Part shown: positions 11,971-24,345 of the stretch, piece by piece | Layout: each line of letters begins with the position of its first letter | Numbering within the stretch: the stretch's first letter is position 1 | NCBI GenBank assembly: GCA_021829015.1 | Contig: JAJZOJ010000036.1 | Coordinates: 1 to 35,366 of the forward strand | Length of the DNA stretch: 35,366 nt | Origin: Microcaldota archaeon | Lineage (GTDB): Archaea; Micrarchaeota; Micrarchaeia; Micrarchaeales; Micrarchaeaceae | Direction of reading: 5' to 3' | Notes under the pieces: generated by a model | Database searches by the model: none | What the model saw: the letters and a program-made list of their open reading frames with translations, nothing else | Told to the model about the DNA's origin: nothing | Translations under genes and position numbers: made by a program

Positions 11971-12579
11971 TCAGCGATTATCCAGTACCTTCCTCAAGTT
12001 TATTTTTTCCGACAGCGTATCCCCAAGAAGTATGTTGTCGCTTATTTTCTCTCCCTTGAGCTTGCATGCATCCGCATATATGTCGTCATAAGGCTTTGTA
12101 ATGTTCTTTTCTAGACTGAATCCAAGCGCAATTGCCAGCGTTTTTATTTTTACCATGTCTCCTTCAATCTCCAGGAAATCCCCAAAAGAGAAGCTGTCTA
12201 CTGTTATTTTGCATCCGTCAGCCATGAATGTGTCCCTTATCCTTTCATAACTGCTTACTGCAGAATAACCCAATTTTTTCAGAATACTCTCTAGCTCGTT
12301 AAATGAGGAGACTTCGACCTCATTTTCATCCTCAATCTTTACGCCCTCCTTTAACTTTGGTTTTTTATAGCTCAGCTCGCACCTCTCCTGATCGCTCTTA
12401 ATATCCACAATCTTTCTAATACGGAGTCTGGCATCATTTTTGTGCAGTGTCCTTTCTGGATTATCATACATTACCGTTAGTTCCTTTGCAGAGCCTTTAT
12501 ATTCCGCCATTGATTTGATGTTTCTCACCAAACCATTGTAATCGCCCACATTGAACTTAAGTTCTATTTCGTCAGCCAT
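11971..12579 (-). CDS. CYTH-domain protein (class IV adenylate cyclase / triphosphatase fold)
   Basis: A 202-residue CYTH protein. The N-terminal ExExK signature is E4-I-E6-L-K8, and the alternating charged strands of the tunnel fold follow (ARLRIRKI, RCELSYKKP, ENEVEVSS, FLEIEGD). CYTH enzymes act on triphosphates (CyaB-type adenylyl cyclase, thiamine triphosphatase, RNA triphosphatase); in archaea the substrate is often unknown. The ATG is about 25 bp downstream of a TATA-like box at 12599-12611, predicting a leaderless mRNA. Base and codon use are clearly more AT-rich than in the neighbouring topA and trmI genes, a sign of different origin. Confidence 0.88.
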   Translation of the reverse strand: MADEIELKFNVGDYNGLVRNIKSMAEYKGSAKELTVMYDNPERTLHKNDARLRIRKIVDIKSDQERCELSYKKPKLKEGVKIEDENEVEVSSFNELESILKKLGYSAVSSYERIRDTFMADGCKITVDSFSFGDFLEIEGDMVKIKTLAIALGFSLEKNITKPYDDIYADACKLKGEKISDNILLGDTLSEKINLRKVLDNR

Positions 12580-13723: not shown

Positions 13724-14056
13724 TCAATACCTGCCCTTGCTCTTGAGGTACTTGTTGACGAGCTCGACCGCCTTGTCTATCGCCCTCCTCACGTCGGCGA
13801 CGGTCTTAGCCCCTGTGCATATTATCTTCCCGTTCTTGAAGAGCAATAGCGCAGCCTTCGGCTCGTGGACCTTGAATATGGCTCCTGGGAACTGCTCAGG
13901 CTCGTAGTCAACGTCATGGGAGAGCTTGGCCAGGCCGTAAAGGTCCAGGTCAACGTTTAGCTCTGCCTTCGTTACTATGTTCTGCACCTTGTAGGTTGGT
14001 TTCAGCACCACCCTCTTGTGCGGCGGATACAGGTTTGAACGCTTTGCCATTTTCAT
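13724..14056 (-). CDS. tbp: Single-repeat TATA-binding protein (half-TBP)
   Basis: About 110 residues covering exactly one TBP repeat. It shows YKVQNIVTKAEL (with the DNA-groove asparagine N26), LDLYGLAKL, then YEPEQFPGAIFKVHEPKA, LLLFKNGKIICTGAK and a final helix. F56 and F73 match the phenylalanine pair that kinks DNA in TBP. Normal archaeal TBP is about 180-190 residues with two such repeats; here the gene ends cleanly with TGA and there is no room for a second repeat on either side. The protein would have to dimerise to form the saddle. The frame is open to a GTG at 14089, but that lies too close to the TATA box at 14093-14103, so ATG 14056 (or 14050) is preferred. Confidence 0.92.
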   Translation of the reverse strand: MKMAKRSNLYPPHKRVVLKPTYKVQNIVTKAELNVDLDLYGLAKLSHDVDYEPEQFPGAIFKVHEPKAALLLFKNGKIICTGAKTVADVRRAIDKAVELVNKYLKSKGRY

Positions 14057-14094: not shown

Positions 14095-14111
14095 TTTAAA
14101 TAGGTTTATGC
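14095..14111 (+). repeat. 17-bp direct repeat, left copy, at the edge of the AT-rich cassette
   Basis: TTTAAATAGGTTTATGC is identical to 16611-16627 in the same orientation. The following bases match partly as well (the pattern NCNCAT). This copy contains the stop codon of the TraB-like gene (14106-14108) and, on the other strand, the TATA box of tbp. The two copies bracket the AT-rich three-gene block, as expected for a target-site duplication or attachment-site pair. Confidence 0.75.
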
Positions 14112-15086
14112 GCTCATCTTATGGCTATAATCTGCCCAACTAAACATCTTTGTGCTTCCAAAATTTGTTTCAATCTCTTTTTTTAACAGGTTCCGAATAG
14201 TTTGGATGTGCCCGACACCAGCCAATGCCACAACAACATCATATTTCTTCATTTTATTTATGCATTCTTCTATCATGCTTTTGTTCCTATATGATTCTAT
14301 GATTGCTAAGAATCTGTTATATTTATATTCCTTCGAGAATGGATACGGGCCTGTTCTACTCAATTCTTCAAGCAAAAGTCCGATGGGCCTTTTAGCTACA
14401 TACATATTGATTGCATCCTGATTTATCCTTTTTATTAGTTCATGTAATTGGGCATTGCCTTTGTCCATTAAAAGAACCCTTTTTTTAAGTCCCCCAACAT
14501 CCCTAACTAACAGATCAGAAATAAAATTATTTATTGCCAATTTATAATGGTCTGAATCAGTTAAATTTCTGCCTTTAGTATATTTACTATTATAGCGCCT
14601 CAATACGTACATTAGTACCGCACACTTTAACTCATTATCATCAAAATTTATATTTGGCTCTTGGTCATCCATGCCTCCAATCTTAATGTTATTTTTGTTT
14701 GCCAAATAAGCAATCCATTCTACCTCTGTCCACACGTTTTTTGGGGCATATAACTTCTTTATGATTTGCTTTCTTGTCACTACTTTATCCACCTCTACAA
14801 GAATAAATCCTGGTCTCGTTGATTTTATAACACTCTTGAGAAAATTTAGAAAAACGCGTCTTTTGTCTTCTGAAAACCTCCAAATATGTAACCCTCCTAT
14901 GAAGACTAAAGTTTTATCCTTTGTTTTATATAGCGTGGACTCCAACATCGGTGCATTAGTTTCATAATCTGCTTTTCCCTTATAATCTCTTAGTCTAGCT
15001 TTTATTGAATATCTATAAGCTTCTTTTGCGTCTACCATATATACCAATATTGATTCAAAAGAATTATTTATAGAACCTCTACTCAA
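14106..15086 (-). CDS. TraB/PrgY/TIKI-like protein, putative metalloprotease
   Basis: A 326-residue protein, third gene of the AT-rich cassette. Near the N-terminus TLVFIGGLHIWRF gives a GxxH motif at 64-67. A conserved-looking glutamate follows in FILVEVDK (E98), and near the C-terminus VVVALAGVGHIQTIRNLL gives a second GxxH at 290-293. Two GxxH motifs plus a glutamate define the TIKI/TraB/PrgY fold, whose animal members are metal-dependent proteases and whose bacterial member PrgY acts against a peptide pheromone. No transmembrane segment is obvious. The TTG at 15086 directly abuts the stop of the radical SAM gene; ATG at 15038 is an alternative start. A leader-peptidase role is inference. 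Confidence 0.6.
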   Translation of the reverse strand: MSRGSINNSFESILVYMVDAKEAYRYSIKARLRDYKGKADYETNAPMLESTLYKTKDKTLVFIGGLHIWRFSEDKRRVFLNFLKSVIKSTRPGFILVEVDKVVTRKQIIKKLYAPKNVWTEVEWIAYLANKNNIKIGGMDDQEPNINFDDNELKCAVLMYVLRRYNSKYTKGRNLTDSDHYKLAINNFISDLLVRDVGGLKKRVLLMDKGNAQLHELIKRINQDAINMYVAKRPIGLLLEELSRTGPYPFSKEYKYNRFLAIIESYRNKSMIEECINKMKKYDVVVALAGVGHIQTIRNLLKKEIETNFGSTKMFSWADYSHKMSA

Positions 15087-16004
15087 TTAGGTATGTTTCA
15101 CCCTATCTCTTGCTTTACTCCATATCTCTTTCCAGCTTTCATGGTACAAATTCCCGATTTTATCATTCCTAACTATCACTCCGCCTACCGAAACGCTCCC
15201 ATCTACAAACACTCCTGCTCTTGCAAGAATTACTGCATTATTATTTATCGTATTTCTGCGTAACATCTTGATAGATTCTGATACGCTGCCATCGTGTTCT
15301 ATTATACCTGCAACTCTAACATCCCCCCTATTTGAACTCCTTATCAGTTGCCTAACCTCCAAATTCATATCAATACTATCTGATAAACTTGGGTATAATC
15401 TATCAAACTCATCCCCAAATGTACTGGCAGGTTGCAGTTCCTCAAGATTCAACGCTTTCAAATGTTTGAATGTGGTAAGCAAGTCCTTGATCGTTCTAGG
15501 TATGTCGGAGATATTTAGCCTGGTCACTACTATTCCCACTTCAAAATTTATACCGTTCTTCTCTAATGTAACTAACCCCTCTAACGTGGGATTTGTTACT
15601 CCTCTTGTGAGATTGTTTATTTTAGGATCTGTACTATCAAAAGAAACTTGAATAATTGGGTAATCTTTATTTAGTTCCCTAAGCCTATTTAAATCAGTTT
15701 TGGAAAGTTCAGAGAGTTTAGTTCCATTTGTACTTATACCCACCTTGCCATTGAAAGTGGCATGTGCAACGTCAATTATTCTAATTATGTCATGCCTTAG
15801 GAATGGCTCTCCACCAAGTAATATTACCGTAAATGGATTTGCTTCTTGCTTGGTTTTTTCCAATAGGTGTATTACATTATCAAATTTTGGCACGTTTGCA
15901 GTAAAAGGCATCGCATAACAATATCTACATTTTAGATTACAAGCACTAATTATTTCGAATTCAATTCGGAATGGGGTTACTGGCAAAGGGAGTCTTTTTT
16001 CCAT
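15087..16004 (-). CDS. Radical SAM peptide maturase-like protein
   Basis: A 305-residue radical SAM enzyme. The cluster motif C22-NLK-C26-RY-C29 follows a short FRIEFEIISA strand, as in SPASM/PqqE-like peptide maturases, and the SAM-binding GGEP is at 64-67. The C-terminal part (VFVDGSVSVGGV...IGNLYHESWKEIWSKARD) has the outline of a SPASM end. However, the protein has no cysteine after C29, so it cannot hold the usual auxiliary Fe-S clusters. It starts 14 bp after the end of the interrupted repeat frame (stop 16019-16021) and abuts the TraB-like gene. A peptide-modifying role is inferred from the neighbour; the substrate is unproven. AT-rich codon use differs from the flanking housekeeping genes. 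Confidence 0.88.
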   Translation of the reverse strand: MEKRLPLPVTPFRIEFEIISACNLKCRYCYAMPFTANVPKFDNVIHLLEKTKQEANPFTVILLGGEPFLRHDIIRIIDVAHATFNGKVGISTNGTKLSELSKTDLNRLRELNKDYPIIQVSFDSTDPKINNLTRGVTNPTLEGLVTLEKNGINFEVGIVVTRLNISDIPRTIKDLLTTFKHLKALNLEELQPASTFGDEFDRLYPSLSDSIDMNLEVRQLIRSSNRGDVRVAGIIEHDGSVSESIKMLRRNTINNNAVILARAGVFVDGSVSVGGVIVRNDKIGNLYHESWKEIWSKARDRVKHT

Positions 16005-16018
16005 GCTAAACCGACCAA

Positions 16019-16291
16019 CTATTCAATATTTAATGCAAGACAATCAATTAACTTAGGGTAATACTTTGCAATAAAGTCTAGCTTTTTGTCTATAAGCTTC
16101 ACCACTAGCTTAATCGCGCTTGCATTGGCATAAAATATTATATCACTATTAAGATTCCTTATAAAGCCATAATCTATGTCATCAAACCTAAATTGTATCG
16201 TGTTTCCAAGTATAGCACTATTTTTTAATTTAACCGTGGCTTTTGAGTTACTATTATTATAATTGCTATAATTACCGTAGTTTGAATAGTT
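16019..16291 (-). other. In-frame continuation of the NYx-repeat ORF beyond an amber codon
   Basis: After the TAG at 16292-16294 the same frame stays open for 90 codons to a second TAG at 16019-16021. It begins with four more NYx units (NYSNYGNYSNYN), then NSNSKATVKLKNSAILG, a segment containing QFRFDDIDYGFIRNLNSD, and a Lys/Leu-rich end (KLIDKKLDFIAKYY) finishing in CLALNIE. The repeats continue across the stop in phase. No ATG, and no GTG or TTG outside the last third, is available for separate initiation, so it would be made only by read-through. It may equally be the remnant of a recently interrupted longer gene. Confidence 0.6.
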
Positions 16292-16549
16292 CTAATAATT
16301 GCCATAATTATTGTAGTTTGAATAGTTACCGTAGTTAGAATAATTATCATAAGAAGCAAGATTTCCTGAGAATACCTCTACGCCAGAACATTTTTCCGTT
16401 TTTGGGAACGCTCGGCCAGGTTCTCTAAGATATGGTATGACCTCAATATCCTCGTATAATTGTTTTTTTGATTCTCTGTTTGGCCTTATAAGTTCTTTGA
16501 AATCAAAAGCTGAGACCTGGTTAGACACGACAGTTTTATTCTTATTCAC
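16292..16549 (-). CDS. Putative RiPP precursor / repeat protein with Asn-Tyr-x tripeptides
   Basis: An 85-residue protein, first gene of the cassette. Residues 1-65 are a mixed, charged leader-like region (AFDFKELIRPNRESKKQLYEDIEVIPYL is its central part) with one cysteine. Residues 69-85 are pure tripeptide repeats: NYS NYG NYS NYN NYG NY, then TAG. It starts at GTG 16549 after a GGGGATTAGGTG purine tract and a TATA box at 16578-16591. The following gene in the same direction encodes a radical SAM enzyme. A leader plus tandem core repeats next to a radical SAM enzyme is the usual layout of a RiPP precursor. A Tyr/Asn-rich low-complexity adhesive or phase-separating protein is the alternative. 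Confidence 0.6.
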   Translation of the reverse strand: MNKNKTVVSNQVSAFDFKELIRPNRESKKQLYEDIEVIPYLREPGRAFPKTEKCSGVEVFSGNLASYDNYSNYGNYSNYNNYGNY

Positions 16550-16577
16550 CTAATCCCCAATTTATCTTGAATAGACC

Positions 16578-16591
16578 AAATATATATAATC
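16578..16591 (-). promoter_or_regulatory. TATA box of the AT-rich cassette
   Basis: ATTATATATATTT on the minus strand lies about 30-40 bp ahead of the GTG at 16549. No other clear promoter is seen between here and the TraB-like gene, so the precursor, radical SAM and TraB-like genes are probably one transcript. Confidence 0.55.
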
Positions 16592-16610
16592 TGCTAGTAC
16601 AATGGTGGGG

Positions 16611-16627
16611 TTTAAATAGGTTTATGC
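16611..16627 (+). repeat. 17-bp direct repeat, right copy, at the edge of the AT-rich cassette
   Basis: TTTAAATAGGTTTATGC is identical to 14095-14111 and in the same orientation. This copy carries the TATA-like TTTAAATAG that probably drives the eL21 gene (ATG 16661, with a GTGGT ribosome-binding sequence at 16652-16656). Removing one repeat plus the block between would place tbp and the eL21 gene back to back around a shared promoter region. Confidence 0.75.
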
Positions 16628-16660
16628 ACACATATTCTACGCTACTTATCAGTGGTACAT

Positions 16661-16948
16661 ATGTCGAAAAGATCCAATGGCTTATTCTCGGGAAGGACAA
16701 GGCATCTTGCCAGGCACAACAGGCCGTCTTCACTGAGCATAAGCGAAACCGTAAAGAGCTTCAATGACGGGGACAGCGTAGCTATAGTGCCCCGCGGGAA
16801 CGCCAAGAACATACCCCACCCAAGGTACAGGGGCAGGATAGCCAAGGTAATAGAACGCCGCGGCTCCGCCTACGTTGTTGAGCTCAAGATGTTCAAGGCG
16901 ACGAAGAGGCTCGTGGTGCCTGCTCTGCATCTAAAGAAGGTACAGTAA
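16661..16948 (+). CDS. rpl21e: Large ribosomal subunit protein eL21
   Basis: A 95-residue archaeal/eukaryotic ribosomal protein L21e. The N-terminus SKRSNGLFSGRTRHLARHNRPSSLSISETVKSFNDGDSVAIV and the later HPRYRGRIAKVIERRGSAYVVEL are diagnostic. The frame is open to GTG 16652, but ATG 16661 is chosen because GTGGT at 16652 is better read as the ribosome-binding site and the protein then begins as usual for the family. Its stop overlaps the next ATG by one base. In many archaea rpoF and DUF655 follow eL21; here they are nearby but inverted. Confidence 0.93.
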   Translation: MSKRSNGLFSGRTRHLARHNRPSSLSISETVKSFNDGDSVAIVPRGNAKNIPHPRYRGRIAKVIERRGSAYVVELKMFKATKRLVVPALHLKKVQ

Positions 16949-22874: not shown

Positions 22875-22969
22875 GGTAATTAGTCCATAGGTTAATCCAT
22901 ATAGATGCCCCATATTCTGCCCAATATCAGAAAGACTTTAATATTTGATTACTCAATAGGTAATCCATA
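22875..22969 (+). promoter_or_regulatory. Three repeats of a GGTAATCCATA-like motif (putative operator)
   Basis: The motif occurs as GGTAATTAGTCCATA (22875-22889), GGTTAATCCATA (22890-22901) and GGTAATCCATA (22959-22969). The last copy runs into the ATG of the regulator at 22969. The TATA-like CTTTAATATTTGATT (22936-22950) lies between the copies. Repeats on both sides of the basal promoter suit autoregulation by the Lrp-like protein encoded immediately downstream. The site assignment is inference. Confidence 0.45.
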
Positions 22970-24345
22970 TGGAAGGATTGCCGGTCAGGATAAGGGCCAC
23001 ATTCGCCAGGCTTAGGAAGGAGAGCAGCAAGTACCTTGAGATAAAGAGGATAAAGGGCTACTTCTTCGTGTACCAATCCACAAGCCGCTGGGACAAGGAG
23101 AAAGGCCGCCCGGTAAAGGTACCTACATACCTTGGCAGGATATACAACGACGGCACATTCAAGGAGGCCGCAAGGAAGAAGGAGAGAAAGATAGCAAAAC
23201 CCGAGACGGAAGAACAGGATGCAACGAAGCAGCTTACGCTCGTAACATCGGTGCAGAACGAGAAAAGGGGCAGAAACGAGAATGCGATCCTAAAGGCGCT
23301 CAGCACCAATGGAAAGATACCGATGTCGATTCTGGGCTCAATTATCGGTGTAAAGGAGACTGCCGCATTGTCCCAGGTGAAAAGACTGGAGGCGAGGTAC
23401 GGGATAAGGTACACGGCAGAGATAGACCCTGTGAAGCTGGGCTACGTGCAGTATCTAATAACCGTGAAATTCATCGGCAAATTCCCGGGGATCGATCAGC
23501 TAAGGAGCGTGCTTTCCGCAGAGCCTAGGGTGCAATTGGCACTCATAACAAAAGGCAGATACGACCTCATGATATACGCATTGTCAAAAAACATAGAAGA
23601 GGTAAACCACCTTGTACTTGACCTGAGGACCAGTCTGCCCTTTGATTCCACTTGGGGAACGGCCCCGATAATACATGGATATGGATACGTGCCCATCAGG
23701 CCGGAATTCATAGAGTCGCTAAAAGGCACGCTATTGACCAGGGAGTATGCGGTCCTCAAGGAATTGATAACAAACGGCAAGAGGGAATTCACAGACATCG
23801 ACGAATTATACGGGTTCGACAAGGGAAGGTCACAATACTCCTACCACAAGCTCAACGGTTCGGGAACGATAAGACGCATAACCATATGCATGCAGAACCT
23901 TCCGATAAGGTACATAGCAGCACTTATCGAGGATACCGTCAACTGGGAGCAATACAAGCGCAACAGGGACAAGTACCTTAGGGACATGATATCAGACAGC
24001 GGGCACATGCTAAACAAATACCTGCTCATATGGGATACAATAAATCCGGACGGCACTATACTCTATGCCCCAATATTCGACGACAACGACCTAAGCAGGG
24101 TAATAGAGTCAAGGGCCAAGCTTAACCTCGGAATCAATACCCGCACCTCGATAGTAACCTCGATAATAGTCGGCAGCTTCGGATACAGGCTTCTGGATAA
24201 CGATTATTCAGAACAACAGACAATACTTGTGCAAAAGTATGGAGACATCATGCCTGAACTGAAAGGCTATGGGCACAAGAGGCACGGCAGAAGAAATAGG
24301 AGCATTCGGAAAGACGTACGCGGGGTTGCTTATACTAGTCCTTGA
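22969..24345 (+). CDS. Lrp/AsnC-like regulator fused to a transposase-like N-terminal segment
   Basis: A 458-residue protein in several parts. Residues about 20-65 (YLEIKRIKGYFFVYQSTSRWDKEKGRPVKVPTYLGRIYNDG) look like the N-terminal segment of IS1634-type transposases. Residues about 105-145 form a helix-turn-helix (NAILKALSTNGKIPMSILGSIIGV). Residues about 147-225 form an Lrp/AsnC effector (RAM) domain (PVKLGYVQYLITVKFIG, VQLALITKGRYDLMIYAL). Another HTH-like segment starts near 258 (LTREYAVLKELITNGKREFTDIDELYGF). Beyond it is a region I cannot assign and a basic tail (GHKRHGRRNRSIRK). It is likely a DNA-binding regulator sensing a small ligand. It appears leaderless. Confidence 0.75.
   Translation: MEGLPVRIRATFARLRKESSKYLEIKRIKGYFFVYQSTSRWDKEKGRPVKVPTYLGRIYNDGTFKEAARKKERKIAKPETEEQDATKQLTLVTSVQNEKRGRNENAILKALSTNGKIPMSILGSIIGVKETAALSQVKRLEARYGIRYTAEIDPVKLGYVQYLITVKFIGKFPGIDQLRSVLSAEPRVQLALITKGRYDLMIYALSKNIEEVNHLVLDLRTSLPFDSTWGTAPIIHGYGYVPIRPEFIESLKGTLLTREYAVLKELITNGKREFTDIDELYGFDKGRSQYSYHKLNGSGTIRRITICMQNLPIRYIAALIEDTVNWEQYKRNRDKYLRDMISDSGHMLNKYLLIWDTINPDGTILYAPIFDDNDLSRVIESRAKLNLGINTRTSIVTSIIVGSFGYRLLDNDYSEQQTILVQKYGDIMPELKGYGHKRHGRRNRSIRKDVRGVAYTSP

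What the first reader, a model, noticed from the sequence alone, without database searches (positions are those of the whole stretch)
14095..16627. Putative mobile RiPP-type cassette: NYx-repeat peptide, radical SAM enzyme and TraB/TIKI-like protease
Seen: three same-strand genes with clearly AT-rich base and codon use, one promoter, tight spacing (14 bp, then abutting), inserted between tbp and the eL21 gene. Known: a short protein with a leader-like part and tandem repeats next to a radical SAM enzyme is typical of ribosomally made, modified peptides, and TIKI/TraB/PrgY proteins act on peptides or proteins. Inference: the radical SAM enzyme modifies the repeats and the TraB-like protein cleaves or controls the product. 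I know of no described system with this combination in a DPANN-like archaeon.
Basis: partly seen in the sequence, partly recalled or inferred. Interest (0 to 1): 0.9.

Follow-up and report, generated by a model that had tools for sequence, protein, structure and literature searches.

The report
Archaeal self-docking modified-peptide cassette
A small block of foreign DNA in an uncultured archaeon encodes a repeat peptide that appears to carry its own docking domain, a radical enzyme that probably modifies the repeats, and a likely peptide-cutting enzyme; relatives of the block keep the same plan, but the peptide gene in this copy is interrupted by a stop codon.

Summary
Corrections: the repeat ORF ends at an in-frame TAG (codon 86), but homologues show that the precursor continues. 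Conserved is not 'NYx' but a plan: leader motif, core of aromatic-x-Asn/Asp/Gln motifs, and a C-terminal domain predicted (pLDDT 92) with the element order of a RiPP recognition element (RRE). The docking element seems to travel on the substrate; sequence support for the RRE is weak. The third protein resembles the TIKI/EreA/ChaN fold; 4 of 12 other loci carry an HExxH protein there instead, which points to a peptidase slot. The window's enzyme belongs to a clade that lacks the three SPASM cysteines of its sister clade, so its chemistry is uncertain. The cassette (35% GC in 53%) sits inside the conserved divergent tbp-eL21 promoter, bracketed by a 17-bp direct repeat. Best reading: a new variant of rSAM-RiPP systems; this copy may be broken.

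The parts
16022..16549 (-). precursor gene, full conserved frame (176 codons), interrupted by TAG at codon 86; stop codon at 16019-16021
   Evidence: translation with the TAG marked; two homologues, P0078 and P0079, span both halves, E 8.8e-23 and 9.3e-17
16406..16441 (-). leader motif VIPYLREPGRAF (family pattern roughly [IL]xPYxRxxxQEF)
   Evidence: alignment A3
16253..16351 (-). core: Tyr-x-Asn repeats (NYx)
   Evidence: D1, 9-nt register; motif enrichment
16292..16294 (-). in-frame TAG stop inside the core; TAG is the stop of 7 of 30 window genes
16022..16255 (-). [quoted passage not shown]
   Evidence: AlphaFold2 pLDDT 92, pTM 0.78; structure rows
15087..16004 (-). radical SAM enzyme, 305 aa, CxxxCxxC at residues 22-29
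   Evidence: Pfam Radical_SAM E 9.4e-19; homologues
15111..15239 (-). SPASM-like tail of the enzyme without the three cysteines of the sister clade (bounds approximate)
   Evidence: alignment A1, per-row Cys table and tree
14106..15038 (-). TIKI/TraB-like protein, 310 aa from ATG (a TTG start at 15086 gives 326 aa); conserved H67, E98, H293 in the 326-aa numbering
14095..14111 (.). left copy of the 17-bp direct repeat TTTAAATAGGTTTATGC (26 nt at 88%: 14095-14120)
16611..16627 (.). right copy of the 17-bp direct repeat (26 nt at 88%: 16611-16636)
13724..14056 (-). flanking tbp gene (host)
16652..16948 (+). flanking eL21 ribosomal protein gene (host)

Best explanation
The cassette is a horizontally acquired peptide-modification (RiPP-type) unit. 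The precursor is built as leader - aromatic-x-Asn core - RRE-like domain in one chain (shown by homology; the fold is predicted). The RRE-like domain binds a leader strand, its own or a neighbour's, and presents the core to the radical SAM enzyme encoded next to it (inferred). The enzyme makes a 5'-deoxyadenosyl radical (from its CxxxCxxC core, by family) and modifies successive aromatic-x-Asn/Asp/Gln units, most likely by joining the aromatic ring to the beta carbon of the residue two places on, as in triceptides (inferred from the motif; less certain in this clade, which lacks the auxiliary-cluster cysteines). A TIKI-fold peptidase, or an HExxH protein in other versions, then frees the modified core or controls the product (inferred from the interchangeable third gene). 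The unit entered the tbp-eL21 divergent promoter with duplication of about 17 bp (direct repeats and empty sites). In this copy a TAG stop cuts the precursor in the core, so the system is either recently inactivated here, polymorphic in the population, or dependent on read-through.
Confidence: 0.72

Rival explanations
1. The C-terminal domain is not a leader-binding RRE but a small partner, chaperone or immunity-like domain of similar topology; the radical SAM enzyme recognises the core or leader directly and the domain stabilises, silences or anchors the precursor until a peptidase removes it.
Against: Order of elements is that of an RRE (definition), RRE-bearing proteins are 5 of the top 8 structure rows, and the leader motif is conserved as it would be for a binding strand.
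Confidence: 0.25
2. In the clade without tail cysteines the enzyme does not cross-link but carries out a redox-neutral or single-radical change of the repeats, such as epimerisation or another modification at Tyr or Asn.
For: All three tail cysteines are absent in 9 of 35 enzymes, which form one side of a branch (99/98 support; SH-aLRT 88, under the 95 mark, with the tail left out), with the CxxxCxxC core invariant.
Against: The precursor keeps the same aromatic-x-N motif in this clade (P0001; P0078 if it belongs to P0015; L007). No call here ties cluster loss to a change of reaction.
Confidence: 0.35
3. The window copy is a decaying pseudo-cassette: the nonsense codon is fixed and the enzyme and third gene are passengers.
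For: TAG at codon 86, with TAG the stop of 7 of 30 window genes; a second precursor, in G130, also shows an in-frame stop, though at a contig end; degraded copies of the TIKI-like gene lie beside the intact one in G001 and G003.
Against: The remaining 90 codons are open (2 of 20,000 shuffles) and keep conserved residues of the domain; the enzyme and third gene are intact.
Confidence: 0.4
4. The three genes are neighbours by chance and the first ORF is a low-complexity AT-rich artefact.
For: The core is a 9-nt-register AT-rich repeat; the TIKI-like protein finds only itself in the large protein search.
Against: The homologues, the conserved order and the same 8 of 301 genomes, and a TIKI-like gene directly downstream of the enzyme in L003.
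Confidence: 0.02

Closest known systems
Triceptides and their three-residue cyclophane-forming rSAM enzymes (XncB, OscB, MscB, YxdB)
   Same: Core made of aromatic-x-Asn/Asp units next to a radical SAM enzyme. PMC11002830 (passages) gives Trp/Phe-x-Asn, Trp-x-Asp and Tyr-x-Asp cross-links.
   Different: Precursor carries a C-terminal RRE-like domain; tandem units including x-Gln; none of the 25 NCBIfam models shown (of 80) reaches its cut-off; the window clade lacks tail cysteines; archaeal; product unknown.
RRE-dependent RiPP systems (PqqD, CteB, SuiB, TbiB1, TigE)
   Same: [quoted passage not shown] conserved leader motif.
   Different: In the passages read of PMC7470986 and PMC12710340 (12 places each) RREs are discrete proteins or fused to other proteins such as biosynthetic enzymes; here the domain is fused to the precursor.
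TIKI/TraB/EreA/ChaN superfamily (TIKI, PrgY, RRSP, erythromycin esterase)
   Same: Fold rows and His-Glu pair; PMC6254334 passages describe the shared His-Glu pair and peptide cleavage by RRSP.
   Different: The Glu two places before the first His is absent; no Pfam or NCBIfam model reaches its cut-off.
rSAM-RiPP clusters reported in archaea and DPANN by genome mining
   Same: PMC12144867 (passages) reports RiPP clusters, ranthipeptides and sactipeptides among them, across superphyla including DPANN; PMC12153355 (passages) reports 9 RiPP-related clusters in DPANN.
   Different: The passages seen name no precursor-RRE fusion, aromatic-x-Asn cores or TIKI-like partner.

Membership tests
rSAM-modified RiPP system | small precursor with leader and core adjacent to a modifying enzyme, conserved across relatives | tested here: met
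   12 of 12 loci; same 8 of 301 genomes
rSAM-modified RiPP system | post-translational modification of the core | not testable with these tools
   needs mass spectrometry
Triceptides / 3-CyFE | aromatic-x-Asn/Asp type motif in the core | tested here: met
   aromatic-x-N/D/Q enriched in 13 of 15 precursors; motif definition from passages of PMC11002830
Triceptides / 3-CyFE | SPASM domain with auxiliary cluster cysteines | tested here: not met
   window enzyme and 8 relatives lack all three tail cysteines; 26 of 35 keep them
Triceptides / 3-CyFE | match to a named maturase model above cut-off | tested here: not met
   best NCBIfam 65.5 bits (ScmE) against a cut-off of 400; none of the 25 shown of 80 reaches its cut-off
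Triceptides / 3-CyFE | three-residue cyclophane in the product | not testable with these tools
   needs MS and NMR
[quoted passage not shown]
   order of elements in the model, pLDDT 92; definition from PMC12710340 passage
RiPP recognition element (RRE) | structural match to known RREs above background | tested here: inconclusive
   [not shown]
RiPP recognition element (RRE) | PqqD (PF05402) sequence match | tested here: not met
   no PqqD hit in 11 members nor in L104, L117, L118; profile comparison prob 4.3%, best of 22 with 20 shuffles and one reversal
RiPP recognition element (RRE) | binds the leader peptide | not testable with these tools
   needs a binding assay or complex structure
TIKI/TraB superfamily | parallel-sheet TIKI/EreA/ChaN fold | tested here: met
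   [not shown]
TIKI/TraB superfamily | catalytic His-Glu pair plus C-terminal His | tested here: met
   H67, E98, H293 invariant in 5 of 5 rows, three of which (L001, L002, L004) are near-copies; motif from passages of PMC6254334
TIKI/TraB superfamily | second Glu two residues before the first His (2His/2Glu) | tested here: not met
   Gly at that place in the window protein, other residues in relatives
TIKI/TraB superfamily | TIGR00261 (traB) above cut-off | tested here: not met
   14.5 against 178.35 bits
Mobile genetic element | empty site in relatives and target duplication | tested here: met
   tbp and eL21 adjacent and divergent in 26 of the 30 loci fetched; 17-bp direct repeat
Mobile genetic element | encodes its own recombinase or transposase | tested here: not met
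   Pfam on the three cassette proteins gives none

The most novel reading that the evidence does not exclude
A RiPP class in which the recognition element is built into the substrate, giving a self-docking precursor (leader - repeat core - RRE), matured by a family of radical SAM enzymes of which one clade has dispensed with the auxiliary iron-sulfur cluster and still processes tandem aromatic-x-Asn units, and finished by interchangeable TIKI-fold or HExxH peptidases, spreading between genomes of ultra-small archaea as a compact block.
Probability: 0.35. Interest if true: 0.85.

Novelty: new variant of a known kind. Interest (0 to 1): 0.7.

Why it matters
If the RRE really sits on the precursor, it reverses the usual layout, in which the enzyme or a separate protein carries the docking element, and offers a natural self-presenting substrate in which the core could be swapped. 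The enzyme family holds a clean comparison, one clade with and one without the tail cysteines on similar substrates, which would make the role of the auxiliary cluster in peptide modification directly testable. It also gives an uncultured archaeal phylum a defined, testable peptide product.

Tried and rejected
Rejected: TAG read as a sense codon throughout (pyrrolysine-like). TAG ends 7 of 30 window genes and the homologues of the precursor end near its second TAG. Rejected: a separate RRE gene downstream of the first TAG; no ATG, GTG or TTG in codons 87-148. Led nowhere: viral contigs gave 16 loci with distant radical SAM proteins, best E 8e-10 and 27% identity. Searches of 115 and 292 genomes of two other archaeal phyla gave no match at E 1e-40, but neither set held a positive control. 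The genome-contig scan is by short patterns and keeps the best 80 of 175; it missed the G130 and G192 loci and the second G001 pair found. Sequence search of solved structures found only two ribosomal chains at E 0.3 and 0.36 for the TIKI-like profile and two weak hits (E 0.11, 0.21) to C39-like proteins for the precursor. Foldseek alone gave no match at E 0.001 or better for either model. Pfam found no family above cut-off for the HExxH proteins. Flanking direct repeats at the 11 other loci tested are no better, or at L117 and L118 only one or two letters better, than the best of 12 shuffles. Paper searches bearing on a precursor-RRE fusion, triceptides in archaea or Micrarchaeota/DPANN RiPPs listed no title or abstract start that describes this system; the library holds only open PMC papers. 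The contigs of P0005-P0034, P0078 and P0079 could not be fetched as such, so the pairing of P0078 with P0015 rests only on an equal contig length of 2491.

Full report
What is in the window. On the minus strand between tbp and the eL21 gene lie three AT-rich genes. GC3 is 0.31-0.32 against a mean of 0.67 for 30 window genes that I picked, two cassette genes included. The first ORF starts with GTG at 16549 and stops at the TAG ending at 16292 after 85 codons, but its frame is open for a further 90 codons to a second TAG. Only 2 of 20,000 base shuffles of that stretch stay open.

A search with the frame marked X at the stop found two proteins, P0078 (153 aa, E 8.8e-23) and P0079 (156 aa, E 9.3e-17), that align over both halves without a stop. 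The intact form is therefore leader, repeat core and C-terminal domain. The window copy is interrupted in the core by TAG, which is the stop of 7 of 30 window genes, and there is no ATG, GTG or TTG for a restart in codons 87-148.

Relatives. Among 73 hits the radical SAM protein has 29 relatives at 37-51% identity besides its own entry. The genome-contig scan kept 8 loci at E 2e-53 or better, the next at 1e-15; seven are named Micrarchaeota (L001 and L002 from one bin) and one (L007) a Syntrophaceae bin. Two relatives are labelled Methanolobus sediminis (P0020) and Marsarchaeota (P0018). In 301 genomes of the phylum of G002 the enzyme is found in 8 (E 1e-30 or better) and the precursor in the same 8 (E 1e-4 or better). 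G130 and G192 were in neither profile; loci or proteins of the other six were, so for them the matches are partly by construction, while the 293 negatives are not. A precursor ORF lies immediately upstream of the enzyme in L001-L008, in a second pair of G001, in two loci of G192 and in G130 (contig end, one in-frame TGA): 12 of 12, that is all 11 matches plus L007. The precursor of the most distant one (L118) was recognised by position and layout; the precursor profile did not list it.

The precursor plan. The relatives share a leader motif near [IL]xPYxRxxxQEF, a core of W/Y/F-x-N/D/Q units in most, and the C-terminal domain. The motif count exceeds shuffles at p < 0.05 in 13 of 15 precursors; L104 (p 0.64) and L118 (p 0.34) do not. 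Core bounds were set by a pattern in that script; for L007 and the partial G130 sequence the whole N-terminal part was taken, and for L104 the stretch began before the leader motif. L001, L002 and L004 are near-copies.

The enzyme. Radical SAM core with CxxxCxxC. In 26 of 35 family members three further cysteines in the tail (252, 270 and 311 in P0008) could hold one auxiliary cluster; in 9 of 35, the window included, all three are missing. These nine are one side of a branch (99/98; SH-aLRT 88 with the tail left out). Of 80 NCBIfam models matched, none of the 25 shown reaches its cut-off.

The insertion. eL21 was found in 239 of 301 genomes and the best 30 were fetched. In 26 of these 30 tbp lies divergent beside eL21 with 69 to 291 bp between the aligned parts; in 4 no tbp match lay in the fetched flank. 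In L122, the closest by TBP (90%), the stretch TTTAAATAGGTTTAT occurs once; in the window TTTAAATAGGTTTATGC occurs at both ends of the cassette. The best repeat in 12 shuffles of the flanks was 11 long. The repeat holds an archaeal TATA-box-like sequence (recalled), so each flanking gene may keep one after insertion. No recombinase was recognised in the cassette, and the other 11 loci tested show no clear flanking repeat. Cassette GC is about 0.07 or more below the flanks at the window, L003, L006, L008, L116 and L117, and not at L001, L002, L004, L005, L007 and L118.

Mechanism. Shown: conserved gene order, precursor plan, family of the enzyme, insertion. Predicted: RRE fold, TIKI fold. Inferred: docking in cis, modification of aromatic-x-Asn units, cleavage by the third protein. 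The triceptide comparison rests on motifs reported in PMC11002830 and PMC9062424 (passages); membership is not claimed because the tail cysteines and the family models were tested and not met. The consequence of the TAG is open.

Novelty. rSAM-modified RiPP clusters in archaea, DPANN included, are reported in general terms (PMC12144867, PMC12153355, passages). The seven paper searches named in Tried and rejected listed no description of a precursor with a built-in RRE or of this Micrarchaeota family. I rate it a new variant of a known kind.

Noticed in passing
G130:C14:7584-7937 (L116, L162): A second precursor with an in-frame stop (TGA, in the leader motif) beside an intact enzyme; it lies at a contig end, so it may be an assembly error. 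With the window copy, 2 precursors of the family are interrupted.
   Followed up: partly
G001:C7:10591-10896, G001:C20:16652-16909, G003:C18:83090-83347: Degraded partial copies of the TIKI-like gene with stops beside the intact gene.
   Followed up: no
L104 1456-1908 and 1929-2951: A second precursor-enzyme pair in G001 whose precursor keeps leader and C-terminal domain but has almost no aromatic-x-Asn core.
   Followed up: partly
L118 2080-4236: A distant version of the system (precursor core WDNGGWSGKGWS, enzyme, 229-aa protein with HGYFHH) next to ORFs that resemble transposases (recalled resemblance, not tested).
   Followed up: no
window 11971-12579: CYTH-domain gene with low GC (0.40, GC3 0.46) in a 53% GC contig; possibly another acquired gene.
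   Followed up: partly
window 22969-24345: 458-aa protein with an AsnC-type helix-turn-helix match just under the Pfam cut-off, in a lower-GC stretch.
   Followed up: no
L007 (DLME01000118.1): A short contig binned as Syntrophaceae carries the system with a cysteine-less enzyme; possibly a misbinned archaeal contig.
   Followed up: no
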